From Burkholderiaceae bacterium (lineage in GTDB: Bacteria; Pseudomonadota; Gammaproteobacteria; Burkholderiales; Burkholderiaceae_C), in the NCBI GenBank assembly GCA_023954035.1, contig JAMLIT010000011.1, positions 17,127 to 81,126 of the forward strand: a stretch of DNA of 64,000 bases. Direction: 5' to 3'. Below are positions 3,159 through 51,900 of the stretch, in pieces (the first letter of the stretch is position 1; every line of letters begins with the position of its first letter). The notes under the pieces were generated by a model. That model did not search any database and was not told the DNA's origin. It saw only the letters and a program-made list of their open reading frames with translations. The translations under genes were made by a program, and so were the position numbers.

Positions 3159-4474
3159 GAAAAACTCCGACTGCCGCACACCAGCCGCTGGCCGAGCGCT
3201 TGCGCCCCAAAACCCTGGGCGAAGTGATAGGGCAAGCCCAGCTGCTCGGCCCCGGCATGCCGCTGCGCCTGGCGTTCGAGTCGGGCAGGCCGCATTCCTG
3301 CATCCTGTGGGGGCCGCCTGGCACCGGCAAGACGACGATCGCCCGCCTGATGGCCGATGCGTTTGATGCGCAGTTCATTGCGATCAGCGCGGTGCTCGGG
3401 GGCGTCAAGGACATTCGCGAAGCCGTCGAGCGGGCCACGGCTGCGCGGGACGGCCTGGAGCAGCGGCGCACCATCGTTTTTGTCGACGAAGTGCACCGCT
3501 TCAACAAGTCGCAGCAGGATGCGTTCTTGCCGCATGTCGAATCGGGCCTTTTCACCTTTGTCGGCGCCACCACGGAGAACCCGTCGTTCGAGGTCAACTC
3601 GGCGCTGCTGTCCCGCGCCACCGTGTATGTGCTGGAGCCGCTCGGGCCTGGGGATTTAAAGCAAATTGTGGCTCTGGCGCAGGCGGAACAAGCGCTACCA
3701 GCTATTGAAAGCGTAGCGGTAGAGCGCTTGGTCGCCTACGCCGACGGCGACGCCCGGCGCCTGCTCAATACGCTCGAAACCCTGGCCATGGCGGCCGGGC
3801 AGGAGAAGGTGGAAGCCATCACCGACGCCTGGCTGCTGCGCGTGCTGGGCGAGCGCCTGCGCCGCTACGACAAGGGCGGCGAGCAGTTCTACGACACCAT
3901 CAGCGCGCTGCACAAAGCGGTGCGCGGCTCGGACCCGGACGCTGCGCTCTACTGGCTGGTGCGCATGCTCGACGGCGGCGCCGACCCGCGCTACATGGCG
4001 CGGCGCATGGTGCGCATGGCCAGCGAAGACATCGGCCTGGCCGATCCGCGCGCGCTGCGCCTGGCGCTGGACGCAGCAGAAGTCTACGAGCGCCTGGGCA
4101 GCCCCGAGGGCGAGCTGGCGCTGGCGCAGTGCGTGGTCTATCTGGCTGTGGCACCGAAATCGAACGCGGTCTACAAAGCCTATAACGCGGCGCGCGCCTT
4201 CATCAAGCAGGACGGCACGCGGCCCGTTCCCATGCATTTGCGCAATGCGCCGACGAAGCTGATGAAGCAGCTCGACTACGGCAAGGGCTACCGCTACGCG
4301 CACGACGAGGCAGATGGCTTTGCCGCAGGCGAGACCTACCTGCCGGAGGGCCTGGCCACCCCCGGTTTCTACCAACCCGTGCCGCGCGGACTGGAGATTC
4401 GGATCGGGGAAAAACTCGACGAATTGCGTGCGCGCAACCACAACGCCGGACGGGATCCGCAGACGCCCCGGTAG
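3155..4474 (+). CDS. rarA: Replication-associated recombination protein A (MgsA/RarA AAA+ ATPase)
   Basis: RarA is a clamp-loader-like AAA+ ATPase that acts at stalled replication forks. The start is the ATG at 3155, preceded by AGGAGG and overlapping the upstream stop; it gives 439 residues, the normal size. Early family signature (LAERLRPKTLGEVIGQ), Walker A (GPPGTGKTT, about residues 54-62) and Walker B (VFVDEVHRFNKSQQD, about 108-122) are present, as are the sensor region ATTENPSFEVNSALLSRA and the C-terminal YAHD-type tail. Residues ~167-186 fall in an unusually AT-rich patch that matches the interspersed element described separately at 3656-3712; the frame is kept through it. Confidence 0.94.
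   Translation: MRKTPTAAHQPLAERLRPKTLGEVIGQAQLLGPGMPLRLAFESGRPHSCILWGPPGTGKTTIARLMADAFDAQFIAISAVLGGVKDIREAVERATAARDGLEQRRTIVFVDEVHRFNKSQQDAFLPHVESGLFTFVGATTENPSFEVNSALLSRATVYVLEPLGPGDLKQIVALAQAEQALPAIESVAVERLVAYADGDARRLLNTLETLAMAAGQEKVEAITDAWLLRVLGERLRRYDKGGEQFYDTISALHKAVRGSDPDAALYWLVRMLDGGADPRYMARRMVRMASEDIGLADPRALRLALDAAEVYERLGSPEGELALAQCVVYLAVAPKSNAVYKAYNAARAFIKQDGTRPVPMHLRNAPTKLMKQLDYGKGYRYAHDEADGFAAGETYLPEGLATPGFYQPVPRGLEIRIGEKLDELRARNHNAGRDPQTPR
3656..3712 (-). repeat. Interspersed ~60-bp element, copy inside rarA
   Basis: Read on the minus strand this stretch gives CAATAGCTGGTAGCGCTTG, then a diverged middle, then CCAGAGCCACAATTTGC. That lines up with the other copies (ATAGCTG, AGCGCTTAT, GCTGGAGGCCAATTT). 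It encodes part of the RarA lid region without breaking the frame. It is one of the more diverged copies on the right-hand arm. Confidence 0.55.
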
Positions 4475-4626
4475 GCATTCGGTGATAAGTCCATACCGGG
4501 CCAAATGGCGCGAAAATTAGACAGACTTATGTTTTGCGCATCCCGCTGATGCGCTGCAAACCCAAGGGAAAACCCCTCCAAACCCGCATCCGTGCTGCGT
4601 TTGCACATCGCTACAATTCCGCCTTC

Positions 4627-4660
4627 AAACCCGCGCGGCTACTTTCCTGGCGGGTTTTTT
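4627..4660 (+). terminator. Rho-independent terminator / possible leader attenuator before livH
   Basis: An 8-bp stem (AAACCCGC paired with GCGGGTTT) closes a 15-base loop and is followed by a run of six T. It could end the rarA transcript. It also lies just after a possible -10 box (TACAAT at 4612-4617) and 80 bp before livH, so it might instead sit in the liv leader. No other gene lies in the 267-bp gap between rarA and livH. Confidence 0.65.
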
Positions 4661-4741
4661 GCTAGATGGCAGACGGGCTCACAAGGCCGCACCCGCGCAG
4701 GGTGCCTGCATACCGAGCCCGCCACAAACGAAGGACTTCTT

Positions 4742-5671
4742 ATGGAAATCTTGCTGCAGCAGATCATCAACGGTCTGGTTCTCGGCAGCATGTACGCCTT
4801 GATAGCCTTGGGCTACACCATGGTGTACGGCATCATTCAACTGATCAACTTTGCGCATGGCGAGGTGCTGATGATAGGCGCGCTCACCAGCTGGAGCTGC
4901 ATCCACCTCATGCAGGATGCCATGCCCTGGGCGCCGGGATGGTTGATCCTTCTGCTTGCCACCATCATTGCCTGCATCGTGGCTGCGGCGCTGAACTTCA
5001 CGATTGAAAAGGTGGCATACCGGCCGCTGCGCAATGCGTCGCGCCTGGCGCCACTCATTACCGCGCTGGGCATGTCCATCCTGCTGCAGACGCTGGCCAT
5101 GATCATCTGGAAGCCGAACTACAAACCCTATCCCACGCTGCTGCCGGCCGCGCCTTTCGAGGTGGCGGGGGCAGTGATCACGTCCACGCAGATTCTGATC
5201 CTGGGCGTCACCGCGATTTCCCTGGCCATCCTGACCTGGCTGGTGGGCTATACCAACCTGGGCCGGGCCATGCGCGCTACGGCAGAAAACCCGCGGGTGG
5301 CCGCGCTCATGGGCGTCAAGCCCGACATGGTGATTTCTGCCACCTTCATCATCGGCGCCATCCTGGCGGCCATTGCCGGCATCATGTATGCATCCAATTA
5401 CGGGACGGCGCAGCACACCATGGGCTTTCTTCCTGGCCTCAAAGCCTTTACCGCCGCGGTGTTCGGCGGCATCGGCAATCTGGCCGGCGCGGTGGTGGGC
5501 GGCATCCTGCTGGGGCTGATCGAGGCGATCGGCTCGGGCTACATCGGCACCCTCACCGGCGGCGTGCTGGGCAGCAACTATGCCGACATCTTTGCCTTCA
5601 TCGTGCTGATCATCATCCTGACGCTGCGGCCGTCGGGCCTGTTCGGCGAACGCGTGGCCGACCGCGCCTGA
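4742..5671 (+). CDS. livH: Branched-chain amino-acid ABC transporter permease LivH
   Basis: LivH is one of the two inner-membrane permeases of the high-affinity leucine/isoleucine/valine-type ABC importer. The ATG at 4742 gives 309 residues, the usual length, beginning MEILLQQIINGLVLGSMYAL, a strong LivH start. The protein is hydrophobic throughout with many membrane segments, and it has the family's INFAHGE motif near residue 37 and a GGIGNLAGAVVGGILLG stretch late on. It heads livH-livM-livG-livF. No periplasmic binding protein gene (livJ/K) is present in the window, so the substrate within the amino-acid/amide class stays uncertain. Confidence 0.93.
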   Translation: MEILLQQIINGLVLGSMYALIALGYTMVYGIIQLINFAHGEVLMIGALTSWSCIHLMQDAMPWAPGWLILLLATIIACIVAAALNFTIEKVAYRPLRNASRLAPLITALGMSILLQTLAMIIWKPNYKPYPTLLPAAPFEVAGAVITSTQILILGVTAISLAILTWLVGYTNLGRAMRATAENPRVAALMGVKPDMVISATFIIGAILAAIAGIMYASNYGTAQHTMGFLPGLKAFTAAVFGGIGNLAGAVVGGILLGLIEAIGSGYIGTLTGGVLGSNYADIFAFIVLIIILTLRPSGLFGERVADRA

Positions 5672-5684
5672 GGAGGACCTGACC

Positions 5685-6764: not shown

Positions 6765-6784
6765 ACACCGCAGAAAGACACAAC

Positions 6785-7567: not shown

Positions 7568-7569
7568 GC

Positions 7570-9186: not shown

Positions 9187-9204
9187 GCCTGGCTCCCGCA
9201 CGCA

Positions 9205-10215: not shown

Positions 10216-10235
10216 GCGACCCGCTCCCGTGCCTT

Positions 10236-10306
10236 CGATGCTATTGAGAGCATAGCTTTCAGCCCTTACTGCATAAGCGCTGGAGGGTAATTTCATTCAA
10301 AATTGA
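10236..10306 (+). repeat. Interspersed ~60-bp element, intergenic copy after pit
   Basis: This copy reads GCATAGCTTTCAGCCCTTAC, then GCATAAGCGCTGGAGGGTAA and an AT-rich TTTCATTCAAAATTG tail. The order of blocks matches the other copies. It sits between the convergent pit and TM2-protein genes. Its inner inverted arms are imperfect, and the run of AT bases does not follow the stem closely enough to call a terminator. Confidence 0.65.
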
Positions 10307-10318
10307 AGGCCGAGCAGG

Positions 10319-10765: not shown

Positions 10766-10772
10766 GGCGCCA

Positions 10773-15492: not shown

Positions 15493-16431
15493 TCAGTAGC
15501 GCGTCTGGCCCAGCTCTTTGAACAGATCGCTATAAATAGAATAGCGAATGGCGCTTATTCCGTCTGCGCTGGGGCCATTTTTTACTGCAGAAATGACGCC
15601 GCAACCGGGTTCGTGCAGGTGCGTGCAGTTGTAGAACTTGCAATGCGAGGCGTGCGCTGCGATGTCGGGCATGCAGCGCGCGAGGTCCATGGGCGCGATG
15701 TGGTGCAGGCCGAATTCCTGGAAGCCCGGCGAGTCGATCACGGCCGTACTGCGCTGCCCATCCAGCCAATACAGCGCCGTGCTGGTGGTGGTGTGGCGGC
15801 CGGAGTTGAGGGCCTGAGAGATTTCGGCCGTCTGCACCGCCGCGCCCGGCACCAGCAGGTTTACCAGACTGCTTTTTCCGACGCCCGAGGGGCCAAGCAC
15901 CAGCGTGGTCTTGCCTGCCAGACGCGGCAGCAGCGCATCGCGGGCGGCTTCGGGCGTTTGCGCAAGCGACAGCGGCAGCACCGGATAGTGCTGGCCTTGG
16001 CCGATGTCGCGGTAGGGCTGCAGGCGCTGCCAGGCGCGCTCGAACGGTTCGGGCAAATCGCTTTTGTTGAGGGCAATGAGCGGTGCAATCCCGGCGGCTT
16101 GCGCAGCGATCAGCGCGCGGGCCAGCTGCATTTCCGAGAAAACCGGCTCGGCAGCCAGCAGGATCAGGATCTGGTCGAGGTTGGCAGCAAACGATTTGGT
16201 GCGGATTTCGTCCTGGCGGTAGAAGAGGTTGCGCCTCTCTTCTACCTTCTCGATGGTGCCCTCGTTGCCCTGACCGGCGGCCGCTGGCAGCCATGCGACC
16301 CGGTCGCCCACCACAGACTGGCTGCGTTTGCCCCGAGGGTGGCAGATGCGGCGCTCGCCGTCCTGCGTTTCCACGACACAGTGCCGCCCGTGGCTGGCAA
16401 CCACCAGGCCTTGGCGCAAGGCTTCAGCCAT
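15493..16431 (-). CDS. rsgA: Small ribosomal subunit biogenesis GTPase RsgA
   Basis: RsgA is a circularly permuted GTPase that checks late 30S assembly. The 312-residue product has an OB-fold N-terminus, G4 as NKSDLPEP (about residue 120), G1 as GPSGVGKSSLVN (about 183) and G3 as IDSPGFQEFG. The zinc finger is Cys-x5-His-x-Cys type (CKFYNCTHLHEPGCGV). After the finger, the last ~28 residues (VKNGPSADGISAIRYSIYS...) come from a copy of the interspersed element in place of the usual E-x-G-x-I-x-x-x-RY tail. The frame is open and the length normal, so it is probably active. Confidence 0.93.
   Translation of the reverse strand: MAEALRQGLVVASHGRHCVVETQDGERRICHPRGKRSQSVVGDRVAWLPAAAGQGNEGTIEKVEERRNLFYRQDEIRTKSFAANLDQILILLAAEPVFSEMQLARALIAAQAAGIAPLIALNKSDLPEPFERAWQRLQPYRDIGQGQHYPVLPLSLAQTPEAARDALLPRLAGKTTLVLGPSGVGKSSLVNLLVPGAAVQTAEISQALNSGRHTTTSTALYWLDGQRSTAVIDSPGFQEFGLHHIAPMDLARCMPDIAAHASHCKFYNCTHLHEPGCGVISAVKNGPSADGISAIRYSIYSDLFKELGQTRY
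15531..15590 (+). repeat. Interspersed ~60-bp element, copy inside rsgA
   Basis: On the plus strand the stretch reads ATAGCGAATGGCGCTTATTC, then CGTCTGCGCTGGGGCCATTT and a TTTACTGCAG tail. It matches the core blocks of the intergenic copies and is antisense to rsgA. It encodes the C-terminal tail after the zinc finger. Confidence 0.7.
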
Positions 16432-16446: not shown

Positions 16447-16782
16447 TCATGTGAGCAGAGCGTCGAAGCGGCTGGCGCAGTCAAAGTCGGTGCTGGATAT
16501 GCCACCCACGTCGTGCGTGTTGAGCCGCACGACACAGCGGTCGTAGTGCACCGAGAGGTCGGGGTGGTGGTCCTGCGCGTGGGCCACGAAGGCCAGCGCA
16601 TTCACGAAGGCCATGGTCTGGTAGTAGTTGGCAAAGCGGTAGGTCTTCTCGATGGCCACTTCGGCGCCGTCGCCTTGCAATCGCCAGCCCTCCCGTTGGG
16701 CCAATGCAGCTACTATTTCTGTAGCTGACAGCGCACGCCGTGTCTGCGTGGACCAGTCTTTTTGCTTCAAATCTTGTGTCAT
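16447..16782 (-). CDS. 4a-hydroxytetrahydrobiopterin dehydratase
   Basis: This enzyme (PCD/DCoH, PhhB) dehydrates 4a-hydroxytetrahydropterin in pterin recycling. The 111-residue product has the family's core: GW near residue 33, YRFANYYQTMAFVNALAFVAHAQDHHPDLSVHYDRCVVRLNTHDVGGIS, with the catalytic His-His pair in the DHHPD motif. Length is slightly above the minimum because of an N-terminal extension. That extension (about residues 1-25) matches a diverged copy of the interspersed element. No phenylalanine hydroxylase gene is seen nearby. Its start overlaps the M48 protease stop by 4 bp. Confidence 0.88.
   Translation of the reverse strand: MTQDLKQKDWSTQTRRALSATEIVAALAQREGWRLQGDGAEVAIEKTYRFANYYQTMAFVNALAFVAHAQDHHPDLSVHYDRCVVRLNTHDVGGISSTDFDCASRFDALLT
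16715..16774 (+). repeat. Interspersed ~60-bp element, diverged copy at the pterin dehydratase start
   Basis: The stretch reads TCTGTAGCTGACAGCGCACG, then CCGTGTCTGCGTGGACCAGT and an AT-rich TTTTTGCTTCAAATCTTG. Block order matches the family, but many bases differ. It encodes the extra N-terminal residues of the enzyme. Confidence 0.45.
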
Positions 16783-31850: not shown

Positions 31851-31853
31851 AGA

Positions 31854-34954: not shown

Positions 34955-35692
34955 CTAGGTTGGGTTCGCCAGACACTGCGCCACGGCTGTCGCGACCACC
35001 TGGCCGTCGCGGTCCTCCATCCAGCCGATCACTGCCAGGCGGCTCGGGTCGGTGCTGGGCGCCAGTTGCATGGCGCGGCGCTCTATCCAGCGGGTGCCGC
35101 GCGGCAAACCCGTACGCTCATTTTTTAATAGCTGATTGCCCTCGTCCCACGTGCGCTGGAACAGGTTTCGGACCAGATTTCTTTCCACGGCCGTGCCTTC
35201 CGTTCCGGCGCCAACCTGCTCCACCAGCGCGATCGAAACGGTCCACGGGCCGTGCTCCCTGGATGGCAGGTCGCCGAGATAACTGACGTCGGCACCGACG
35301 TAGCCGCTGACCGCCGGCCCGAACGACACGCGCAGGTGCCCGGCGGGTGGGCGCGCAGCCGCCGTGCTGACGTGCACGGCGCTGGTGGCAGGCGGCTGGC
35401 GGCCAAGGGCCTGCAGCCGCAGGAGTGCCTCCGGTCGCGCGGCGGCCGAAAGCGGGGCATCGTCGCCGGCCGCCGTAGGGACGATCCAGTCGAGCACCGC
35501 AGCGCTCGGGCCGGGTGCCAATCGGGTGCCTTGCCAGCAGTCGGTGCAGTCGGCGCTCAGGAAGCGCTCGACCAGCACCCGCGGCGCGGATGCGCCGTCG
35601 CTGCTGCAGGCGTTTTGGGCCGACACCAGCGGCCCCTGAAGGGCCAACAGCCCAACAAGCAGCCGCGGCACAGTGCGTACGAAGAAGTGCAT
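34955..35692 (-). CDS. Hypothetical secreted protein with a CxxC motif (DUF1223-like)
   Basis: The 245-residue product from ATG 35692 starts with a signal peptide (MHFFVRTVPRLLVGLLALQG, cleavage near VSAQNA). Soon after it carries ERFLSADCTDCWQG: a thioredoxin-like Cys-x-x-Cys in a context like the DUF1223 start (LVELFTSQGCSSC). The remainder is soluble. A redox or disulfide role is therefore possible but not shown. A diverged copy of the interspersed element lies inside the gene (about residues 175-191). It is divergent from uvrD. Confidence 0.6.
   Translation of the reverse strand: MHFFVRTVPRLLVGLLALQGPLVSAQNACSSDGASAPRVLVERFLSADCTDCWQGTRLAPGPSAAVLDWIVPTAAGDDAPLSAAARPEALLRLQALGRQPPATSAVHVSTAAARPPAGHLRVSFGPAVSGYVGADVSYLGDLPSREHGPWTVSIALVEQVGAGTEGTAVERNLVRNLFQRTWDEGNQLLKNERTGLPRGTRWIERRAMQLAPSTDPSRLAVIGWMEDRDGQVVATAVAQCLANPT
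35118..35170 (+). repeat. Interspersed ~60-bp element, diverged copy inside the CxxC-protein gene
   Basis: The stretch reads TTTTTTAATAGCTGATTGCC, then CTCGTCCCACGTGCGCTGGA and an AGGTTTC tail. Blocks ATAGCTG and TGCGCTGGA are in the right order and spacing, but the match is partial. Confidence 0.45.
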
Positions 35693-35718
35693 GGAGCCTC
35701 GCTTTCTACAATTGGCGC

Positions 35719-38151
35719 ATGTTCCCACAAGACCCGGCATCCCGTGCGCCGCACGGGGCAGCGCCCACGCCATCGGCGTCGCGGCTGCTCGCGCACCTCA
35801 ACGCCGAACAATTGGCCGCCGTCACCGCGCCCCCCGGCCACGCCCTCATCCTGGCAGGCGCCGGCTCGGGCAAGACGCGCGTACTCACCACGCGCATCGC
35901 CTGGCTGCTCTCGACCGGTCAGGCCACGCCCGGCGGCATTCTCGCCGTCACCTTCACCAACAAGGCGGCCAAGGAGATGGTGGCGCGGCTCTCGGCCATG
36001 CTGCCGGTGAACGTGCGCGGCATGTGGATAGGCACCTTCCACGGGCTGTGCAACCGGCTGCTGCGCGCGCACCACAAGGCGGCGGGATTGCCGCAGGCGT
36101 TTCAGATTCTCGATACCCAAGACCAGCTCTCGGCCATCAAGCGACTGTGCAAGCAGGTCAACGTGGACACCGAGCGCTTCGTGCCCAAGCAATTGCAGTA
36201 CTTCATTGCAGGCTGCAAGGAGGAGGGCATGCGCCCCCGCGATGTTCCTGCCCACGACAGCGACGCGCGCAGGAAGGTCGAGATCTACCAGCTCTATGAG
36301 GAGCAATGCCAGCGCGAAGGCGTGGTCGATTTTGGCGAGCTGATGCTGCGCAGCTACGAGCTGCTGCGGGACAACGACGCCATCCGCGCGCACTACCAGC
36401 ACCGCTTTGCGCACATCCTGGTGGACGAGTTCCAGGACACCAACAAGCTGCAATACGCCTGGCTTAAACAGCTCGCCAGCGACGAGGTGGCCGGCCGGTT
36501 CGAGCCCCGCGGCAGCGTGATGGCGGTGGGCGACGACGACCAGAGCATCTATGCCTTTCGCGGCGCGCGCGTGGGCAACATGCAGGACTTCGTGCGCGAA
36601 TTTCGCGTCGAGCGGCAAATCAAGCTCGAGCAGAATTACCGCAGCTACAGCAACATTCTGGACAGCGCCAACGCGCTGATTTCCCACAACAGCAAGCGCC
36701 TGGGCAAGAACCTGCGCACCGAGCGCGGCCCCGGCGAGCCGGTGCGCGTGTACGAGGCGGCGAGCGACCTGCAGGAAGCGCAGTGGATGGTGGACGAAAT
36801 CCGCCAGCTGGTGAAGAACGACGGCGTGGCGCGCCAGGAAGTCGCCATCCTCTACCGCAGCAACGCGCAAAGCCGGGTCATTGAAACCGCGCTGTTCAAC
36901 GCCGCCGTGCCCTACCGGGTGTACGGCGGCCTGCGCTTTTTCGAGCGCGCCGAAATCAAGCACGCGCTGGCCTATCTGCGGCTTTTGGAGAACCCGCAGG
37001 ACGACACCAGCTTTTTGCGCGTGGTGAACTTCCCGCCGCGCGGTATCGGCGCGCGCAGCCTGGAGCTGCTGCAGGACGCCGCCAAAAGCGCGGGCTGCTC
37101 GCTGCACGACGCCGTCACCAGCATGAGCGGCAAGGCCGGCAGCAACCTGACCGCCTTTGTCGCGCAAATCGACGTGCTGCGCGAGCAGACCCAGGGCCAG
37201 CCGCTGCGCGCCATCATCGAGCAGGTGCTGGAAGCCAGCGGCCTGCTCGAGCACTACCGCGCCGAGCGCGACGGCCAGGATCGCATTGAGAACCTGAACG
37301 AGCTCGTCAATGCCGCCGAGAGCTTCGTCATGCTCGAAGGCTTCGGCCGCGACGCCGTCGCCCTGCCGCTCGACGAGCACGGCCAGCCGCTCAGCCAAAG
37401 CCCGGCCAGCCAGGGGCTGGACCCGAACGCGCCGCTGCTGGATGCCCCCCTTCTCAACCCGCCGGGCGTGGACCAGGACACCGGCGAGACGCTCTCGCCG
37501 CTGGCCGCCTTCCTCACGCACGCCGCGCTCGAAGCCGGCGACAACCAGGCCCAGGCCGGCCAGGACGCCGTGCAGCTGATGACGGTGCACGCCAGCAAGG
37601 GGCTGGAATTCGACGTGGTCTTCATCGGCGGCCTGGAAGACGGCCTGTGTCCGCATGAGAACGCCCTCTCCGAGCAGGGCGGCATCGAGGAGGAGCGCCG
37701 CCTGATGTATGTCGCCATCACCCGCGCCAGAAAGCGCCTGTACCTGAGCCACTCGCAGACCCGCATGCTGCACGGCCAGACGCGCTATGCCATCAAAAGC
37801 CGATTCTTCGACGAGCTGCCCGAATCGGCGCTCAAGTGGATCACGCCCAGGCAATCGGCATTTGGTGCAACTGCTTCTTTTTTAGGAGCTGGTAGCGTAT
37901 ATGGAATAAGCGCTAGAGGCCAATTTGGCTTGAATTCTGAGCGCTTTTCCAACCCACCCGTGCCGCCGCAGAAGCAGCCGCTCGCCCACGGCATCGCGGC
38001 CGGCAAGAGCGTGTTCCATACCAAGTTCGGTGAAGGCAAGGTGCTGGCGGTCGAAGGCACGGGCGATGACGCGCGCGCGCAAGTGCGCTTTGGCCGCCAT
38101 GGGACCAAGTGGCTGGCGCTGGCGGTTGCGAAGCTGACCTTGGTCGATTGA
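35719..38151 (+). CDS. uvrD: DNA helicase II UvrD (SF1A)
   Basis: UvrD unwinds DNA 3' to 5' in nucleotide excision and mismatch repair. The ATG at 35719 gives 810 residues. SF1 motifs are in order: I (AGAGSGKTRVLTTRI), II (VDEFQDTN), III (GDDDQSIYAFRGA), IV (LEQNYRS), V (VHASKGLEFDVVFIGGLEDG) and VI (RRLMYVAITRARKRLYLSH). The C-terminal Tudor-like segment (VFHTKFGEGKVLAVEG) is kept. Between motif VI and this segment, residues ~714-741 (GATASFLGAGSVYGISARGQ...) come from a copy of the interspersed element; the frame stays open. Confidence 0.95.
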   Translation: MFPQDPASRAPHGAAPTPSASRLLAHLNAEQLAAVTAPPGHALILAGAGSGKTRVLTTRIAWLLSTGQATPGGILAVTFTNKAAKEMVARLSAMLPVNVRGMWIGTFHGLCNRLLRAHHKAAGLPQAFQILDTQDQLSAIKRLCKQVNVDTERFVPKQLQYFIAGCKEEGMRPRDVPAHDSDARRKVEIYQLYEEQCQREGVVDFGELMLRSYELLRDNDAIRAHYQHRFAHILVDEFQDTNKLQYAWLKQLASDEVAGRFEPRGSVMAVGDDDQSIYAFRGARVGNMQDFVREFRVERQIKLEQNYRSYSNILDSANALISHNSKRLGKNLRTERGPGEPVRVYEAASDLQEAQWMVDEIRQLVKNDGVARQEVAILYRSNAQSRVIETALFNAAVPYRVYGGLRFFERAEIKHALAYLRLLENPQDDTSFLRVVNFPPRGIGARSLELLQDAAKSAGCSLHDAVTSMSGKAGSNLTAFVAQIDVLREQTQGQPLRAIIEQVLEASGLLEHYRAERDGQDRIENLNELVNAAESFVMLEGFGRDAVALPLDEHGQPLSQSPASQGLDPNAPLLDAPLLNPPGVDQDTGETLSPLAAFLTHAALEAGDNQAQAGQDAVQLMTVHASKGLEFDVVFIGGLEDGLCPHENALSEQGGIEEERRLMYVAITRARKRLYLSHSQTRMLHGQTRYAIKSRFFDELPESALKWITPRQSAFGATASFLGAGSVYGISARGQFGLNSERFSNPPVPPQKQPLAHGIAAGKSVFHTKFGEGKVLAVEGTGDDARAQVRFGRHGTKWLALAVAKLTLVD
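37875..37940 (+). repeat. Interspersed ~60-bp element, well-preserved copy inside uvrD
   Basis: The copy reads TTTTTTAGGAGCTGGTAGCG, then TATATGGAATAAGCGCTAGA and GGCCAATTTGGCTTGAATTC. It is among the best matches to the consensus and is much more AT-rich than the surrounding gene. Confidence 0.75.
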
Positions 38152-41513: not shown

Positions 41514-41879
41514 TCAGAACTTGATCACGTTCCACACGCGCGGGCCGGTGGTCGATTCGGAGCCATTCTGCGGTCGATTGCGCACGCCGTCGGACGGCAG
41601 CACCTCGTAGGAGGGCATGCTGCCGGCAGCGGGCTGCACGGTGATGCTGCGCGTCTGGCCGCCTATGCGCAGTTCGTCGACTGCGCTGCCCTGGTCCTGC
41701 AGGTGGATGCGTTCCACGCGCTGCTCGATACGCTGCCTTGATTGCTCTGTATTCGATAGCTGATTTGGGTTATCCAGCGTGCGCTGGGTGCCATTTTGAC
41801 TGGTATTTTGGGCAAGCGCGCAGCTGCTGGCGAAAGCCAGCAGCAACACACAGGCGATGGGGTGGGGAGGGGCGCGCAT
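41514..41879 (-). CDS. Hypothetical small secreted protein (121 aa)
   Basis: The product has a signal peptide (MRAPPHPIACVLLLAFASSCALA, cleaved before QNTSQN) and a hydrophilic mature part rich in Gln, Arg, Asn and Ser. Near the end is a YEVLPSDGVRNRPQN-type segment. I do not recognise the family; similar small secreted proteins sit beside polA in other Burkholderiales. The N-terminal half of the mature part (NTSQNGTQRTLDNPNQLSNTEQ) is encoded by a copy of the interspersed element. Confidence 0.6.
   Translation of the reverse strand: MRAPPHPIACVLLLAFASSCALAQNTSQNGTQRTLDNPNQLSNTEQSRQRIEQRVERIHLQDQGSAVDELRIGGQTRSITVQPAAGSMPSYEVLPSDGVRNRPQNGSESTTGPRVWNVIKF
41752..41810 (+). repeat. Interspersed ~60-bp element, copy inside the 121-aa secreted-protein gene
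   Basis: The copy reads TTCGATAGCTGATTTGGGTT, then ATCCAGCGTGCGCTGGGTGC and CATTTTGACTGGTATTTT. The tail matches the intergenic copy at 51837 (GATTTGACGGGTATTTT) very well. It is antisense to the gene. Confidence 0.65.
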
Positions 41880-46047: not shown

Positions 46048-46102
46048 GACTCCCCCTGCGGCGCGCCTGTGGCACACAGGCAGTGGCGCGAGCGGCGCAG
46101 GT

Positions 46103-46154
46103 ATCGGGGTCAGATCACGATTTCGCAAAGCGAAACTCGTGCTCTGACCCCGAT
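46103..46154. repeat. REP-like palindrome after polA
   Basis: A 52-bp imperfect palindrome has arms ATCGGGGTCAGATCACGATT and the matching AGTCTCGTGCTCTGACCCCGAT-type arm around GCAAAGC. The TCTGACCCC/GGGGTCAGA ends resemble sequences I associate with REP-type elements and RAYT transposases in Burkholderiales. It could fold into a strong hairpin and might also end polA transcription. Confidence 0.6.
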
Positions 46155-46237
46155 GCCGGACTATCGAGCGCCGCGATGGCGGGCCGCAGAACAGTCGAGC
46201 TGTTCGCCAGCAGCCATTGCCTGCCTGAACCCAGGTA

Positions 46238-46303
46238 GAAATTTTAGTGTTTTAGGCCTCTAGCGCTTATCCCGTAAGCGCTTCCAGCTATCAAGATTGA
46301 AAC
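46238..46303 (-). repeat. Interspersed ~60-bp element, intergenic copy directly before azlC
   Basis: On the minus strand this reads TTGATAGCTGGAAGCGCTTA, then CGGGATAAGCGCTAGAGGCC and TAAAACACTAAAATTTC. The inner arms GCGCTTA...TAAGCGC are perfect. It forms the whole 5' region of azlC up to its GTG. Confidence 0.75.
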
Positions 46304-47059
46304 GTGAATCCGTCCCTGCCCACCCTGCGCCCCGCCTCCTGGACCCCCGCCATGCGCATGGGCCTGTCCATCGCCGTCGCCACCGGCCTCTACGGCATCT
46401 CCTTCGGCGCGCTCGCCGTGGCGGCCGGCCTCACCGTCGGGCAGACCATGGCGCTCAGCCTGCTGATGTTCACGGGCGGCTCGCAGTTCGCCTTCATTGG
46501 CGTGATCGCAGGTGGCGGTGTCCCGTCTGCCGCGCTCGGCGCCGCAGCACTGCTGGGCGTGCGCAACGCCGTCTACGCCATGCAGATGAACCACATGCTC
46601 CAACCCCGTGGCTGGCGCATATGGCTCGCCGCCCAGGTCACCATCGACGAATCCACCGCCACTGCCGCTGGCCAAACCGCGCTTGATGAGCAGCGCCGCG
46701 GCTTCTGGACGGCGGGCTTGGGCATTTTCGTGCTCTGGAACCTGTTCACCTTCGTCGGCGCCTGGCTGGGCGACGCCCTGGGCGACCCGCGCCGCTGGGG
46801 GCTGGATGGCGCGGCCGTCGCGGCCTTCCTCGGCCTGCTCTGGCCCCGCCTGCGCCAGCGCGAGCCTGTAGCGCTGGCGGTGCTGAGCGGCGTGGTCACC
46901 GCGCTCGCCTTGCCCATGCTGCCGCCCGGTCTGCCCATCCTTGTCGCCGCTGCGGTCGGCGCCGCCTGGGGTTGGTGGGTGCCCGAGCGCGCTGCGGCTG
47001 CGCCTGTCGGGTCTGACGCGGCAGAAGCGGCAGAAGCGGCAGAGGGGACAGCACCATGA
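46304..47059 (+). CDS. azlC: AzlC-family branched-chain amino-acid exporter, large subunit
   Basis: AzlC with AzlD (YgaZH type) exports branched-chain amino acids. The start is probably the GTG at 46304 (MNPSLPTLRP), giving 251 residues; an ATG at 46352 gives a shorter version starting at the first helix. The family segment GLYGISFGALAVAAGL leads into MFTGGSQFAFIGVIAGGG and GVRNAVYAMQMN. The C-terminus carries an unusual Ala/Glu repeat (AEAAEAAEG). The gene has no clear ribosome-binding site because the interspersed element abuts it. It overlaps azlD in an ATGA junction. Confidence 0.85.
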   Translation: MNPSLPTLRPASWTPAMRMGLSIAVATGLYGISFGALAVAAGLTVGQTMALSLLMFTGGSQFAFIGVIAGGGVPSAALGAAALLGVRNAVYAMQMNHMLQPRGWRIWLAAQVTIDESTATAAGQTALDEQRRGFWTAGLGIFVLWNLFTFVGAWLGDALGDPRRWGLDGAAVAAFLGLLWPRLRQREPVALAVLSGVVTALALPMLPPGLPILVAAAVGAAWGWWVPERAAAAPVGSDAAEAAEAAEGTAP

Positions 47060-47361: not shown

Positions 47362-47900
47362 GGGAGCGCTTGCAGGGATCCTGGTTTCACCGCGGGCGCC
47401 TTTTGGCCAGTCCCTCCAGGCCATCGCTGCGCTGGGCCCCGGCCTCGGCAGCGGTGCGCATTCGGCGGAGCGCAGGCATTGGGGCGCAGTGCAACTGTCG
47501 GGTCGCGATGCGGCGCAGCGAAGCCCGTGCTCAAAACCCAATCCCGGAAAAAGGGCGCAACGCGGGGGTTTGCCCATTTAATGATTTGATTGCTGCAGTG
47601 GATTACCGTCCAGATGGCGAGCGGCTACGATCGACCATTTGAAGCAATCTCCGCTTTTCTGCAGAAACGTCATTCGAACTGCCGACACTCTCTGAATATT
47701 GTCGGACAACCTCTGTGCATTTCAAATATTCAAGCGTTTTTTGCGCAGCGTACGCCGGGGCGGTGGATTAAGCACCACCGCTCCGGCGCACAAATTAATA
47801 CTTGCATCCGCACCACAGCATCTGCTGGACGGCGCTTGAGCAAGTGCGCAGAGCCGGGTTCTACATCTTGGCATCGGCCAGAAAATGCACCCTTCCGTGA
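47362..47900. other. Gene-free stretch after azlCD
   Basis: About 540 bp carry no convincing gene on either strand. The first ~200 bp are GC-rich like the chromosome, and the rest is much more AT-rich with many short stops. I see no tRNA, terminator or strong repeat. The composition break near 47580 suggests old insertion or decay. Confidence 0.5.
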
Positions 47901-48182: not shown

Positions 48183-48531
48183 AGTGCAACTCCTTCTTTC
48201 GAAAAAATCGTGAGATTGATGTCATGGCAAAACAAGGCAGCCTGGTCAGGGTTGCTCCATCTAGACTTCAGCTGACCTTTACGAATGATAGGCGAAATGA
48301 AGATGTCAGAACAGGTATCGGAACACAATAGAAGGGAACCTCTAAAAATCGCTGGTTCTGCATTGACATGCTCAGCTGTTTTGCAATTTCCGTTAATGCT
48401 AATTTCTGATGCAAACGAGTCTTATTTTAGCGCGTTTTCGTCCTTCTTCTCCGTCTGAGACATTTGCGCTTTGCAGATGCACCGCAGTTTTCGATGGCTC
48501 TTCCTGGTAGAACGCATCCGACTCGTAGCGT
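48183..48531. other. AT-rich gene-free stretch
   Basis: About 350 bp before the azlD copy contain no gene that I can support. The region must hold the promoter of the minus-strand secreted-protein gene. No strong promoter or hairpin stands out. Confidence 0.45.
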
Positions 48532-48776
48532 AGGCCATTCTGGCCGGCGCCGCCTTCACCTACCTCACCAAGCTCTCGGGTTACGCCGTGCCTGCCCGCT
48601 GGCTCGCCAACCCCCGCATGACGCGCGTGGCCGGGGCCATCACCGTGGCGCTGCTGTCGGCCTTGACCGTGATGAACACCTTCGCAGCTGGCGCTGAGCA
48701 GGCGCTGAATGCGCGGCTGGCGGCCTTGGTGGTGGGTGTGAGCGCGGGCAGTTCAAGCACCGCGTTGACGGCGTAA
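48532..48776 (+). pseudogene. Truncated second copy of azlD
   Basis: The stretch 48532-48736 is almost identical to azlD bases ~47076-47280 and lacks the first seven or so codons. It then jumps, at a GGTGGTGG repeat, to the sequence at the azlD end (GGTGGGTGTGAG). The result has lost about 70 bp and reads on into unrelated residues to 48776. This is a duplication followed by an internal deletion. Confidence 0.85.
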
Positions 48777-48843
48777 AGTGCTGATTCGCGCGGTGAAGCA
48801 TCGAATGCTCCCGGCATGATTTCTCCAGGCTGGGCCAGTCACC

Positions 48844-49668
48844 ATGATTTCATCAACGAGGCATGACACCAATCCCTCGTTCCCTATCGGTTTTAAACCG
48901 CTCAAGGGAACGCCCAAAGACTGCGAAGAATGTGGCAGGGGCGCGCGCCTCGACTTCGGCTTCGAATACGCTTTTCAACCCATCGTAGATCTCGACAAGC
49001 GCAGCATCTACGCGCACGAAGCCTTGGTGCGCGGGCCGCGGGGCGAGAGTGCCGACAGTGTTCTGGCGCAGGTCCATGACGACAACCGCTACCGGTTTGA
49101 CCAGGCGTGCCGCGTCAAGGCCATCAAAGGTGCCAGCGCCCTGGGAATGACTGAGTTGCTGTCGATCAATTTTTTGCCCAACGCCATCTACAGGCCCGAG
49201 CTGTGCATTCGCACGACCCTGGAGGCCGCGCGGGTGCACGGGTTTGCGCTCGAGCGCATCATTTTCGAGGTGACCGAAGGCGAGCGGGTGGAAGATGGCC
49301 CCTGGTTCGCCGAGATCCTGCGCGAATACCAGCGCTGTGGCTTCAAAACGGCCATCGATGATTTCGGGGCCGGCTACGCGGGCCTGGCTTTGCTCGCCGA
49401 TTTTCAGCCTGACCTGATCAAGCTCGACATGGGCCTGGTGCGCCATATCGATCGCGACCGTGCGCGGCGGGTCATCGTCGGCAGCCTGGTGCGCATGTTC
49501 CGCGACATGGGCATAGAGGTGATTGCCGAAGGGGTTGAGACTGAGGCTGAGCGCGATGTGCTGCGCGACGCGGGCATCCATCTGATGCAGGGCCACCTTT
49601 TTGCCCGGCCCGCTTTTCAAGCGCTCGCTCCCGTGGGGTTCGGCGTGCCCCCTGGCGCGCAGTCCTGA
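48844..49668 (+). CDS. EAL domain cyclic-di-GMP phosphodiesterase
   Basis: EAL enzymes cleave cyclic-di-GMP to pGpG, which Orn (present in this window) degrades further. The 274-residue product has a short Cys-bearing N-terminus (DCEECGRG). The catalytic set is complete: YAHEALVRG (the EAL), SINFLPN (Asn), FEVTEGERV (Glu), AIDDFGAGYAG (DD), IKLDMGLVR (Lys) and EGVETEAE (Glu). It has no sensor domain of its own, so regulation by partners is likely. The frame and length are clean. Confidence 0.9.
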   Translation: MISSTRHDTNPSFPIGFKPLKGTPKDCEECGRGARLDFGFEYAFQPIVDLDKRSIYAHEALVRGPRGESADSVLAQVHDDNRYRFDQACRVKAIKGASALGMTELLSINFLPNAIYRPELCIRTTLEAARVHGFALERIIFEVTEGERVEDGPWFAEILREYQRCGFKTAIDDFGAGYAGLALLADFQPDLIKLDMGLVRHIDRDRARRVIVGSLVRMFRDMGIEVIAEGVETEAERDVLRDAGIHLMQGHLFARPAFQALAPVGFGVPPGAQS

Positions 49669-49803
49669 GGCGCCGGTCTGCACAGGCGCTGCCAGCGGAG
49701 GATGGTGGCCCCTGCCACACACGAAACGAGCAGCGTCGCTACACTGATTTTTGTGGCGCACCTGCGGGTCGCGCCTGTCTGATTTCTTCGAGGAGCTTGT
49801 TGC

Positions 49804-50682
49804 ATGCCTGATTCCACCCCCTACACCCCGCCCGCCGTCTGGCAGTGGAACAAGGAAAACGGCGGCAAGTTCGCCAGCATCAACCGGCCGATTTCCGGCG
49901 CAACGCACGACAAAGAGCTGCCGGTCGGCAAGCACCCGCTGCAGCTCTATTCGCTGGCGACACCCAATGGCGTCAAAGTCACGGTGATGCTGGAGGAACT
50001 GCTGGCGCTGGGCCACAGCGGGCCTGAATATGACGCCTGGCTCATCAATATCCAGGAGGGCGCGCAATTCGGCAGCGGCTTTGTGGCGGTGAACCCCAAC
50101 TCCAAGATTCCGGCGCTGCTGGACCGCAGCGACGCAGCCCACCCCGTGCGCGTGTTCGAGTCTGGCGCCATCCTGCTGTACCTGGCGGAGAAATTTGGCG
50201 CCTTTGTTCCTGCCAGTGGTGCGGCGCGCGCCGAGTGCCTGTCGTGGCTGTTCTGGCAGATGGGCAGCGGGCCGTTTTTGGGCGGCGGCTTCGGGCATTT
50301 TTATGCCTACGCGCCAGAGAAGTTTGAATACCCTATTGATCGCTTTGCCATGGAGGTCAAGCGCCAGATGGATGTGCTGAACAAGCGCCTGGCAGAGCAC
50401 GAGTTCATCGCCGGGAGCGACTACACCATTGCCGACATGGCGATCTGGCCCTGGTATGGGGCGCTGGCCCGGGGCCAGTTGTACGAGGCGGGCGAGTTTT
50501 TGCAGGTGCACGAATACACCCATGTGGTGCGCTGGGCCGAAAAGATCGCCCAACGCCCGGCGGTGCAGCGCGGGCGCAAGGTGAACCGTGTGTTTGGCGA
50601 CCCCGCCAGCCAGCTGCACGAGCGACACGATGCCAGCGACTTTGATACCAAGACCCAAGACAAGTTGGCCTCATCCACTTAA
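49804..50682 (+). CDS. YghU-like glutathione S-transferase / disulfide-bond oxidoreductase
   Basis: The 292-residue product resembles YghU/YfcG, which use glutathione to reduce disulfides. The start ATG at 49804 follows a typical TTGTTGC spacing. The N-terminal thioredoxin fold carries GNA/NGVKVTVMLEELLALG and VNPNSKIPALLDRS, and the helical domain ends in GSDYTIADMAIWPWYG. The N-terminal extension before the fold (about 60 residues) is usual for YghU. It lies 12 bp before a second GST gene, so the two probably form one transcript. Confidence 0.9.
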   Translation: MPDSTPYTPPAVWQWNKENGGKFASINRPISGATHDKELPVGKHPLQLYSLATPNGVKVTVMLEELLALGHSGPEYDAWLINIQEGAQFGSGFVAVNPNSKIPALLDRSDAAHPVRVFESGAILLYLAEKFGAFVPASGAARAECLSWLFWQMGSGPFLGGGFGHFYAYAPEKFEYPIDRFAMEVKRQMDVLNKRLAEHEFIAGSDYTIADMAIWPWYGALARGQLYEAGEFLQVHEYTHVVRWAEKIAQRPAVQRGRKVNRVFGDPASQLHERHDASDFDTKTQDKLASST

Positions 50683-50694
50683 GGACACCCCCAC

Positions 50695-51327
50695 ATGATT
50701 ACCTTGTACGACTGCGCCTCGGCGCCCAGCCCGCGCCGGGCGCGCATCTTCCTCGCTGAAAAGGGCGTGCCACACGACACCATTGCAGTCGACCTGCGCA
50801 CCGGCGAGCAGCTGGGCGAGGCCTACCGCCAGATCAACCCGCAGTGCACCGTGCCCGCGCTGCGTACCGACGAAGGCCTGCTGCTGGCCGACAACGCGGG
50901 CATTGCCGCCTACCTGGAGGCGCGCTACCCCGAACCGCCCCTGCTGGGCACCACGCCCGAGGAGAAGGCCGAGATTGCCAGCTGGAACTGGCGCATGGAG
51001 TTCGAGGGCCTGCTGGCCATTGCCGAGGCGCTGCGCAACAGCGCGCCTGCCATGGCCAACCGCGCGCTGCCAGGGGCGGTGAACTATCCGCAAATTCCCG
51101 CATTGGCCGAGCGAGGCCTGGCGCGGGTCGACCAGTTTTTCGACACGCTCAATGCGCGCCTTGCGGGCCGCGACTTCGTGGCAACCGAGCGCTTTTCGGT
51201 GGCCGACATCACTGCCGTGGTGGCGGTGGACTTCGCACGCATCGTCAAGCGCAAGCCGGGCGAGCAGCACCCGCACCTGCTGCGCTGGCGCGCGGCCATG
51301 GCGGAACGGCCGTCCATGGCTTTGTAG
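50695..51327 (+). CDS. Glutathione S-transferase
   Basis: This 210-residue GST begins MITLYDCASAPSPRRARIFLAEKGV. The glutathione-binding loop is INPQCTVPALRTDEG followed by LLADNAGIAAYLEARYP, and the C-terminal helices include DFVATERFSVADITAVVAVDFARIV. It follows the YghU-like gene by 12 bp and precedes the flavodoxin-like gene by 12 bp. Substrate cannot be predicted. The three genes together suggest a small thiol/redox or detoxification unit. Confidence 0.9.
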   Translation: MITLYDCASAPSPRRARIFLAEKGVPHDTIAVDLRTGEQLGEAYRQINPQCTVPALRTDEGLLLADNAGIAAYLEARYPEPPLLGTTPEEKAEIASWNWRMEFEGLLAIAEALRNSAPAMANRALPGAVNYPQIPALAERGLARVDQFFDTLNARLAGRDFVATERFSVADITAVVAVDFARIVKRKPGEQHPHLLRWRAAMAERPSMAL

Positions 51328-51339
51328 CAGGGTGCGGAC

Positions 51340-51834
51340 ATGCGCAAGACGCTGCTGATCGTCTACCACTCCCTGACGGGCGGTACGCAGCAAATGGCCG
51401 AGGCGGCGCGGGCCGGGGCCGCGACGGACGAAGCTTGCACAGTGCGGCTGTTGCACGCCGCAGAAGCGGGCCCGCAAGACGTGCTGGCAGCCGACGGCTA
51501 TCTCTTTGCCACGCCCGAGAACCTGGCGGCCATCAGCGGGCAGCTCAAGGATTTTTTTGACCGCTGCTACTACCCGGTGCTGGACCGGGTGAACGGCCGC
51601 CCCTACGCCAGCCTGGTGTGTGCGGGCAGCGATGGCAGCAACGCGGCGCGGCAGATGGCGCGCATTGCCACCGGCTGGCGGCTCAAGGCGGTGGCCGAGC
51701 CGTTGATCGTGTGCACCCACGCCCAGACGCCCGAGGCCATCCTGGCGCCCAAGCACATTGGCGCCGACGATCTGGAGCGCTGCCGTGCGCTGGGCGAGGC
51801 CCTGGCGGCGGGGCTGTCGCTGGGCGTCTTCTGA
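51340..51834 (+). CDS. Flavodoxin-like / NADPH-dependent FMN reductase-family protein
   Basis: The 164-residue product starts MRKTLLIVYHSLTGGTQQMAEAARAG, with the phosphate-binding loop HSLTGGTQ of flavodoxins. The middle segment DGYLFATPENLAAISGQLKDFFDRCYYPVLDRVNGRPYASLVCAGSDG has the isoalloxazine-loop pattern. It probably binds FMN. It follows the GST gene closely and may share its transcript. The start and length are normal for flavodoxin-like proteins. Confidence 0.8.
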   Translation: MRKTLLIVYHSLTGGTQQMAEAARAGAATDEACTVRLLHAAEAGPQDVLAADGYLFATPENLAAISGQLKDFFDRCYYPVLDRVNGRPYASLVCAGSDGSNAARQMARIATGWRLKAVAEPLIVCTHAQTPEAILAPKHIGADDLERCRALGEALAAGLSLGVF

Positions 51835-51836
51835 TT

Positions 51837-51900
51837 CTGTTTTGATAGCTGCTGGCGCTTGTTCTGTAAGCGTTGGAGGCCGATTTGACGGGTATTTTCT
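51837..51900 (+). repeat. Interspersed ~60-bp element, intergenic copy after the flavodoxin-like gene
   Basis: The copy reads TTTTGATAGCTGCTGGCGCT, then TGTTCTGTAAGCGTTGGAGG and CCGATTTGACGGGTATTTTC. It is close to the consensus. It lies between two convergent genes. Confidence 0.75.

What the first reader, a model, noticed from the sequence alone, without database searches (positions are those of the whole stretch)
3656..51900. Nine copies of a ~60-bp interspersed element, six of them inside genes
Copies at 3656, 10236, 15531, 16715, 35118, 37875, 41752, 46238 and 51837 share an ordered set of blocks: TTTTGATAGCTG, GCGCTTAT, a short gap, CGTAAGCGCTGGAGG, CCAATTTGA, TTGAATTTT. The core can form a GCGCTTA...TAAGCGC hairpin. 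Copies are AT-richer than their surroundings, occur in both orientations and lie in rarA, rsgA, a pterin dehydratase gene, uvrD and two secreted-protein genes without breaking the frame. No transposase is nearby. This looks like a small non-autonomous repeat family with an unusual tolerance for coding regions. I know similar repeats exist in related genomes but not a formal description.
Basis: seen in the sequence. Interest (0 to 1): 0.78.

Follow-up and report, generated by a model that had tools for sequence, protein, structure and literature searches.

The report
Long DNA signal written into genes
Bacteria of the Comamonadaceae carry well over a hundred copies of a 69-base DNA pattern, and in the genes that could be checked the pattern did not jump in as an insert but replaced the local spelling of existing proteins, which suggests that something in the cell reads this unusually long DNA signal.

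Summary
All nine stretches belong to one family, and a tenth copy lies in lolA (1493). The own genome holds at least 150 copies (scoring cap). Forty-nine of 150 family genomes have at least one match; none of 24 genomes from other families of the order does.

The unit is a rigid 69-bp pattern centred on a dyad, with sharp ends, few indels and no excess of half-sites; no two of 98 copies exceed 88% identity. In the 7 of 17 in-gene copies with an ortholog in a genome lacking the family, there is no 23-residue insert; the same protein region is spelled differently. At rarA the segment is 37-40 residues long in 79 of 80 loci, while its match to the motif runs from about -110 to +57 bits. Hairpin covariation is weak.

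Best explanation: a genome-wide recognition site for an unidentified dimeric DNA-binding protein, created and kept in place by substitution. Chromosome organisation and DNA-uptake-like self-recognition are the leading roles; neither is shown. Some intergenic copies may be insertions. Phage contigs also carry it. The core spacing was listed in 2017 as an unexplained motif of Acidovorax ebreus.

The parts
   Evidence: R1 52.3 bits; PWM 47; LolA Pfam PF03548; same length in G002
3652..3720 (-). copy in rarA (ORF 3005-4474 +), reverse to the gene
   Evidence: R1 57.6 bits; RarA/MgsA by Pfam; in-place origin over 80 named loci
10237..10305 (+). copy between convergent genes
   Evidence: R1 62.8 bits; nine orthologous gaps of 66-348 bp hold sites scoring 6 to 70
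15526..15594 (+). copy at the end of rsgA (ORF 15493-16431 -), reverse to the gene
   Evidence: R1 49.5 bits; RsgA by Pfam; protein alignment with non-carriers, which are 4 residues shorter there
   Evidence: R1 24.8 bits, E 5e-4; PWM 18; orthologs of the same or nearly the same spacing score 2 to 40
35113..35181 (+). copy inside ORF 34955-35773 (-), no Pfam match
   Evidence: R1 23.9 bits; PWM 38; four orthologs with the same spacing, four others 6 residues shorter next to the site
37870..37938 (+). copy in the C-terminal linker of uvrD (ORF 35515-38151 +)
   Evidence: R1 70.1 bits; UvrD by Pfam; non-carrier linkers are 2-3 residues longer
41741..41809 (+). copy inside a small secreted-protein ORF 41514-41879 (-), reverse to the gene
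   Evidence: R1 21.0 bits; PWM 49; no Pfam match
46238..46306 (-). copy between co-directional genes, just before the downstream gene
   Evidence: R1 59.2 bits; nine orthologous gaps score 67 down to -71
51830..51898 (+). copy between convergent genes
   Evidence: R1 57.8 bits; orthologs in G004, G014, G018 score 53-71

Best explanation
The element is a long (69 bp) genome-wide DNA recognition site rather than a mobile insert. An unidentified protein, probably a homodimer that bends or wraps DNA, recognises a dyad-symmetric core (GCGCTTA-5 bp-TAAGCGC) plus AT-rich blocks about two and three helical turns out. Selection or a sequence-biased process builds and maintains such sites by substitution in place, wherever the local sequence allows: mostly just after stop codons and between genes, but also inside genes by changing codons and permissive residues. 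Shown: rigid unit with sharp ends, no insertion at the comparable in-gene sites, codon-level imprint, both orientations, even spread round one chromosome, near-complete absence in some species of the same genus, symmetric shift of the consensus between two genera. Inferred: the protein, its dimeric binding, DNA bending. Function is not shown. My ranking of roles within this explanation: chromosome organisation (about 0.35), a DNA-uptake or self-recognition signal (about 0.3), other (about 0.35).
For: Boundaries: information stops sharply at columns 1 and 69, centred on the dyad at column 35. Rigidity: 146 of 150 own matches and 118 of 133 in another genus span exactly 76 positions. No excess of half-sites over three shuffled sequences. 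In place: 7 of 7 in-gene copies with an ortholog in non-carriers G002 or G005 lack any 23-residue insert. RarA: segment of 37-40 residues in 79 of 80 named loci, scores a continuum. Codon choice: 17 of 17 in-gene copies beat all 5000 synonymous resamplings, z 3.8-8.2; 15 of 17 beat all 300 column-shuffled matrices. Copies are nearly independent draws: mean identity 61%, maximum 88%. Dyad without hairpin: outer stem columns 22-25 with 45-48 do not covary within copies, yet genus g5 shifted both half-sites (its 30 best copies). Loss or absence: 22 of 25 congeners carry 75 or more matches, G002, G005, G008 carry 0, 1, 0; 835 kb of G002 holds two weak look-alikes. No strand or position bias in G029 (133 sites).
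Against: No trans-acting protein was found; neither gene family tested (Y1 transposase, ComEC) separates carriers from non-carriers. Intergenic gaps are longer in carriers than in G002 in 4 of 5 comparable pairs (51/8, 77/63, 100/24, 75/42 bp; 87/586 the other way), and one site is absent in a close relative with a 73-bp difference: insertion of some copies is not excluded. A degenerate motif (scores -9 to 23) sits at the stop codon of the Y1 transposase gene in 8 of 8 carriers looked at, against -21 or nothing in 4 of 4 non-carriers. On the 32-copy seed three of five pairing measures exceed nearly all shuffles (5-6 of 500 reach them), and in 98 copies pairs 31-39, 32-38 and 2-22 covary (p 0.018, 0.008, 0.012, uncorrected). 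Copies are slightly more alike than independent draws (nearest neighbour 75.0% against 72.4%, 0 of 300). Symmetry outside the core is weak. Third-position identity between carriers is higher inside the site than outside in 9 of 10 comparisons for rarA and 7 of 8 for uvrD, but in only 4 of 12 for rsgA. Some genomes far from the family give z of 3-5 in rarA at strongly negative scores, since the best offset was chosen.
Confidence: 0.65

Rival explanations
1. A non-autonomous mobile element (MITE or REP-like): copies were pasted in by a transposase acting in trans, mostly between genes, and later decayed or were fitted into proteins.
Against: No insert at 7 of 7 comparable in-gene sites; no pair of copies above 88% identity; no excess of half copies; intergenic length differences of 14, 33, 43 and 76 bp are not a constant unit. 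The Y1 gene occurs in non-carriers too and has a different repeat, GGGGTCAGA/TCTGACCCC-like, downstream in 12 of 12 and upstream in 8 of 12 printed flanks; strong copies lie 3.2 kb or more from it.
Confidence: 0.2
2. A DNA-uptake (self-recognition) sequence for natural transformation, of the same logic as DUS and USS but much longer, spread by biased uptake and recombination. This is a special case of the best explanation.
For: Genome-wide, both strands, genes and gene ends, in-place origin, a second dialect, near-complete absence in some species. In print, DUS sit in permissive places of the core genome, form gene-end pairs and come in dialects (PMC2397512 and PMC3630211, passages read). ComEC present in 20 of 22 carrier congeners.
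Against: 69 bp instead of 10-12; hundreds, not thousands, of copies; the unit is a dyad and half-sites are not in excess, whereas one DUS suffices for transformation (PMC2397512). ComEC is also present in non-carriers G002 and G005, and is split into three frames in carrier G028. Phage contigs carry the motif.
Confidence: 0.3
3. An RNA-level signal at gene ends (terminator, processing or stability hairpin).
For: Of 75 classed copies outside called genes, 51 lie between co-directional, 23 between convergent and 1 between divergent genes; some orthologs of the 10237 site look by eye like terminator hairpins with a T tract; weak pairing signals.
Against: Orientation relative to co-directional genes is balanced (23 same, 28 opposite); no covariation of the outer stem; copies in mid-gene in both orientations; no Rfam family matched the copies in the window (one copy searched with permissive threshold).
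Confidence: 0.1

Closest known systems
Spaced motif GCTTAT(N)5AAGCG of Acidovorax ebreus TPSY (PMC5217627, 2017; section 13 read)
   Same: The same core spacing; 114 copies, of which 5 in genes; 44 convergent, 4 divergent, 59 co-oriented; close to gene ends. The same table lists ATAGCT(N)22CAAAAG in Polaromonas naphthalenivorans (125 copies, 18 in genes), which begins like the left arm here.
   Different: Reported only as an unexplained pair of 5-6-mers; in the section read there is no full-length unit, no origin, no in-gene analysis and no comparison between genomes.
DNA uptake sequences (DUS) of Neisseriaceae and USS of Pasteurellaceae
   Same: Many copies, in genes and at gene ends, with dialects that differ between species (passages of PMC2397512 and PMC3630211).
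   Different: 10-12 bp, thousands of copies, single copies suffice; here 69 bp, dyad-based, half-sites not in excess; uptake untested. PMC2397512 argues that many recent DUS arrived by recombination, not by point mutation.
Beta-proteobacterial repeat element BRE (PMC3110155; section 14 read)
   Same: Repeats in Comamonadaceae and relatives, some entirely inside coding sequences.
   Different: 75-91 bp, 69% G+C, tandem and variable in number in Bordetella; here 41% G+C and mostly single. Sequences were not compared, because BRE's sequence is in a figure and a supplement.
REP elements and Rickettsia palindromic elements
   Same: Interspersed palindromes; the Rickettsia elements lie in reading frames (passages of PMC10969869).
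   Different: The Rickettsia elements are inserts; REPs are recalled to be linked to a Y1 transposase. Here no insert in 7 of 7 comparable genes, and the Y1 gene has another repeat.

Membership tests
REP/RAYT family | Y1 transposase gene flanked by the repeats (feature recalled) | tested here: inconclusive
   12 Y1 loci: a degenerate motif (-9 to 23) at the gene's end in 8 of 8 carriers, -21 or none in 4 of 4 non-carriers; strong copies in 3 loci, 3.2 kb or more away. The gene's own flanking repeat is a different one, and Y1 genes are present in non-carriers
REP/RAYT family | Hairpin maintained by compensating changes | tested here: not met
   98 copies: outer stem columns do not covary; 31-39, 32-38 and 2-22 do weakly, below the strongest unrelated column pairs of the same scan. 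The 32-copy seed exceeded shuffles on three of five measures
MITE | Copies are inserts, absent as a unit from empty sites | tested here: not met
   In-gene: 7 of 7 comparable genes without an insert. Intergenic is inconclusive: length differences vary, one 73-bp case
MITE | Terminal inverted repeats with target-site duplication | not tested
   No clean recent insertion was available
Rickettsia palindromic element type | In-frame insertion of an extra peptide into a protein | tested here: not met
   RarA, RsgA, UvrD, LolA, the ORF at 41514, an enoyl-CoA hydratase-like gene (L131) and the gene at L040: non-carriers shorter by at most 4 residues in RsgA and 10 in the 41514 ORF of G005, otherwise within 3
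DNA uptake sequence | Genome-wide overrepresentation on both strands, in genes and between them, with dialects | tested here: met
DNA uptake sequence | Short single motif of about 10-12 bp (DUS) that acts as one unit | tested here: not met
   69-bp dyad unit, no excess of half-sites
DNA uptake sequence | Enhances DNA uptake by competent cells | not testable with these tools
   Needs an uptake assay; ComEC presence does not separate carriers from non-carriers
Intrinsic terminator | Stem followed at once by a T tract, downstream of genes in one orientation | tested here: not met
   Orientation 23 same, 28 opposite; in the consensus the T tract starts about 8 bases after the stem. No terminator program was run
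BRE of Bordetella and other Betaproteobacteria | G+C-rich 75-91 bp sequence | tested here: inconclusive
   Size and G+C differ; the sequences could not be compared
Rfam families | Match to a described RNA family | tested here: not met
   No Rfam match at the window's copies at gathering thresholds; best sub-threshold match at the uvrD copy has E 0.34

The most novel reading that the evidence does not exclude
Comamonadaceae have an undescribed, very long (69 bp) sequence-recognition system that marks their chromosomes, and partly their phages, at hundreds of sites. It is written by substitution into intergenic spacers and conserved genes, forms genus-specific dialects, and is lost wholesale when its reader is lost: a self-recognition or chromosome-organising code longer than any uptake, Chi-like or nucleoid-protein site that I can recall.
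Probability: 0.35. Interest if true: 0.88.

Novelty: new variant of a known kind. Interest (0 to 1): 0.7.

Why it matters
A DNA signal of this length that reshapes codons and residues of conserved proteins (RarA, RsgA, UvrD, LolA) is a clean natural case of DNA-level constraint overriding protein and codon preference. Closely related carriers and non-carriers in one genus make the reader protein findable by comparing gene content, and make the question 'selection or molecular drive?' testable. It also warns that repeats found inside genes are not necessarily insertions.

Tried and rejected
Mobile insert: rejected for the 7 comparable in-gene copies, left open for intergenic ones. Y1 transposase (RAYT) as the mover: present in non-carriers, with its own different flanking repeat; but a degenerate motif lies at the gene's end in 8 of 8 carriers, so this is not closed. 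Hairpin or RNA function: mostly rejected on 98 copies, although the 32-copy seed, largely picked by an exact core match, exceeded shuffles on three of five measures. Half-site as the unit: no excess (sequence resembling a whole unit at -20 or more was masked first, and only two such hits below 0 exist; 76.6 kb of non-carrier sequence gave more weak half-site matches than the own genome, not explained). Codon-position test of consensus matches gave 0.77, 0.82, 0.82 for positions 1, 2, 3, which decides nothing. Replichore or strand bias: none in G029. ComEC as separator: no. Plasmids: the uvrD copy with flanks matched one of 72,556 plasmid records, in a cobN gene of Diaphorobacter, not followed up; one copy is an insensitive probe. 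The copy in a phage terminase matched no record in the annotated phage collection. The terminase copies sit in a variable C-terminal tail, so they do not tell insertion from in-place origin. Literature searches: held no paper. I opened eight papers by id, of which seven are held; I recognised the motif only in PMC5217627. For the other papers listed I saw titles and, for some, abstract beginnings.
Full report
What is there. A seed of 32 copies from the own genome aligned over 76 columns with only end gaps. Three of the ten are weak (16706, 35113, 41741); the seven strong ones were all in the seed. A weight matrix iterated on 98 own copies separates the family from Markov-generated sequence by a wide margin (window copies 18 to 78 bits, best of ten controls -14). 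The own genome, a 3.3-Mb draft of 76 contigs, holds at least 150 copies, which is the number the tool would score. The window's ten copies in 64 kb would scale to about 500 per genome, but this rests on one window.

Shape. Over 98 copies the information content rises at column 1 and falls to background at column 70, and flanks share nothing. The unit is thus 69 bp, centred on the dyad of the core GCGCTTA-NNNNN-TAAGCGC (columns 26-44). AT-rich blocks lie about 20 and 30 bp from the centre, which suggests bending or wrapping (inference). Symmetry outside the core is weak. Copies are rigid: 146 of 150 own matches and 118 of 133 matches in the genome G029 of another genus span exactly 76 positions, although the model allows gaps. 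Half copies are not more frequent than in three shuffled sequences. Pairwise identity over columns 4-70 averages 61% and never exceeds 88%. That is close to, but above, what independent draws from the columns give (nearest neighbour 75.0% against 72.4%, 0 of 300 permutations reach it). There are no young, near-identical copies among the 98.

Not clearly a hairpin family. The palindrome suggests a hairpin. On the 32-copy seed three of five pairing measures exceed nearly all of 500 shuffles (5, 5 and 6 reach them) and two do not (229 and 234). On 98 copies the variable outer stem columns 22-25 with 45-48 vary independently (p 0.13-0.83); pairs 31-39 and 32-38 next to the loop covary (p 0.018 and 0.008, uncorrected), as does 2-22 beyond the small left hairpin (p 0.012), but unrelated column pairs reach higher z values in the same scan. 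Columns that never vary say nothing. Between genera both half-sites shift: in the 30 best copies of G029 the consensus TTA...TAA is TTG...CAA and CTAGCGC...GCGCTAG is CCAGCGC...GCGCTGG. I read this as a two-fold symmetric protein site; a paired stem would also shift on both sides, but should covary within copies.

Where it lies. Of 99 own copies 69 were called intergenic, 17 inside predicted genes and 13 partly overlapping. The gene finder is simple: it missed the ORF at 34955-35773 and the gene at 16706, so two window copies counted as outside genes are in coding sequence; and the stretches were chosen around known copies. Copies outside called genes lie just after stop codons (median 9 bp). 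Of 82 such copies 75 could be classed: 51 between co-directional, 23 between convergent and 1 between divergent genes, against 67, 23 and 15 background gaps; the one divergent case is the missed ORF's copy at 35113. Orientation is balanced (23 same, 28 opposite). In G029 133 sites are spread evenly without strand bias.

Not inserted in the genes that could be checked. This is the central result. For every in-gene copy I looked for the ortholog in non-carrier genomes of the same genus, within the stretches held. Seven of 17 had one: uvrD, rarA, rsgA, lolA, the ORF at 41514, the enoyl-CoA hydratase-like gene in L131 and the gene at L040. None lacks the roughly 23 residues that an insertion would add. 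Non-carriers are 4 residues shorter in RsgA, 1 and 10 shorter in the 41514 ORF (G002, G005), 1 shorter in L040, equal in LolA (G002) and L131, 1 longer in RarA and 2-3 longer in UvrD. In RsgA the motif overlies the tail segment GISAxRYxIYxxL, which non-carriers have as HISANRYRIYGDL. For RarA I compared 80 loci with named records, mostly Burkholderiales: the segment is 37-40 residues long in 79 and 54 in one (L211). The DNA score at the site runs without a clear break from about -110 over -9, 2, 10, 18, 22, 29, 35 and 43 to 57. Four Variovorax loci encode nearly the same peptide with scores of -46 to -62 and ordinary codons (z -0.6 to 1.1 in L141, L142, L144, L146). The offset was chosen as the best one, which lifts all z values; some distant genomes reach 3-5 at very negative scores. 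In all 17 in-gene own copies codon choice beats all 5000 synonymous resamplings, and in 15 of 17 also all 300 column-shuffled matrices, so AT-richness alone does not explain it. Between G000 and other carriers amino-acid identity is lower inside the site than outside in 9 of 10 comparisons for rarA and 8 of 8 for uvrD; four-fold third positions are more alike inside in 9 of 10 and 7 of 8, but in only 4 of 12 for rsgA, on few positions each.

Between genes the picture is less clean. Of 77 copies tested only five true intergenic gene pairs were found together in the non-carrier stretches; the gap is shorter there in four (by 43, 14, 76 and 33 bp) and much longer in one; a sixth row (16706) concerns a gene that the finder missed. 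One copy of G016 is missing in G004 with a 73-bp difference but without a tidy junction. Scores at orthologous gaps are graded (for example 71, 67, 67, 56, 51, 39, 31, 8, 1 and -71 at the 46231 site). Insertion of some intergenic copies cannot be excluded.

Who has it. Of 25 congeners 22 have 75 or more matches (scoring cap 80), while G002, G005 and G008 have 0, 1 and 0; of ten other genera of the family six have at least one; of 24 other families of the order none has any. A wider draw gives 49 of 150 family genomes and 42 of 126 genera with at least one match (stricter filters, 32 candidates scored per genome). In 835 kb of G002 the best scores are 17.7 and 11.1, then negative. Named loci with a rarA score of 26 or more include Comamonas badia and Rhodoferax and Polaromonas MAGs. 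A strict pattern, which fits 43 of 98 own copies exactly, finds 74 stretches in viral contigs, 73 of them with matrix score 20 or more. I examined 7 of these 74, chosen for high scores: in 6 a neighbouring gene or the gene holding the copy is phage-like (RecT/RecE, terminase, portal, Rha or another regulator). Whether these are free phages or prophages was not settled.

The Y1 transposase. A Y1 gene of about 235-270 aa (373 in G007) is found in most genomes of the genus, carriers and non-carriers alike. Strong copies lie in 3 loci, 3.2 kb or more away. The gene is flanked by a different repeat, GGGGTCAGA/TCTGACCCC-like, downstream in 12 of 12 and upstream in 8 of 12 of the printed flanks. So the gene's own repeat seems to be another one, and the degenerate motif may be one more gene-end site; but a link is not excluded. 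I lowered the best explanation from 0.68 to 0.65 and raised the mobile rival from 0.17 to 0.2 for this.

How it most likely works. A rigid symmetric site, kept at DNA level, created in place, with two dialects and near-complete absence in some congeners, points to a reader protein. I put 0.65 on that. The role is open. An uptake signal fits the genome-wide, dialect-forming behaviour known for DUS (PMC2397512 and PMC3630211, passages), but length, copy number, lack of half-sites and presence on phage contigs speak against it. ComEC does not separate carriers from non-carriers (20 of 22 carrier congeners; G002 and G005 have it, G008, an incomplete genome, does not). A chromosome-organising site fits the symmetry, phasing, avoidance of divergent (promoter) gaps and even spread. 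A mobile REP-like element fails on insertion in genes and on copy identity. A terminator fails on orientation and mostly on covariation.

What is in print. PMC5217627 (2017) lists GCTTAT(N)5AAGCG in Acidovorax ebreus, 114 copies, as a potential novel motif without function (section 13). That is the core of this family, so the repeat as such is not new. BRE (PMC3110155, section 14) is G+C-rich and looks different, but could not be compared by sequence. The review of MITEs cites a MITE in Polaromonas; the genome paper that it cites is not held, so identity with the present family is open. I found no description of the full unit or of its in-place origin in searches, which cover one open-licence library only and show 20 papers per search at most.

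Noticed in passing
window 63581-63976: A CRISPR array begins at the window's right end (six direct repeats, Rfam CRISPR-DR16).
   Followed up: no
G002 stretches L219-L258: The non-carrier G002 has two further highly repeated CRISPR-like repeat units in the stretches held (about 38-40 and 32 copies).
   Followed up: no
window about 47407-47626: A stretch of roughly 120-220 bp recurs at other places of the own genome (C49) and of G007, G012 and G018 at 73-82% identity: another dispersed repeat.
   Followed up: no
window about 46077-46160: A 74-84-bp stretch matches single places elsewhere in G004 and G012 at 93% and 89%.
   Followed up: no
G028:C1:1836740-1837544: A carrier of another genus with a one-contig genome has its ComEC gene split over three pieces, so the motif persists where this competence gene looks broken.
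   Followed up: no
L067-L078, around the Y1 gene: The conserved Y1-transposase gene is flanked by its own repeat (GGGGTCAGA/TCTGACCCC-like), in carriers and non-carriers alike, and carries a degenerate copy of the present motif at its stop codon in 8 of 8 carriers.
   Followed up: partly
L344:8126-8201, L321:1101-1176, L337:8487-8562: Strong copies (matrix scores 91, 86, 86) lie in the C-terminal tail of phage terminase large-subunit genes (L344 and L321 by PHROGs, L337 by an identical tail).
   Followed up: partly
L230 (minus strand, offset 14157) and L255:3037: Two weak look-alikes (17.7 and 11.1 bits) in non-carrier G002 may be relics of the family.
   Followed up: no
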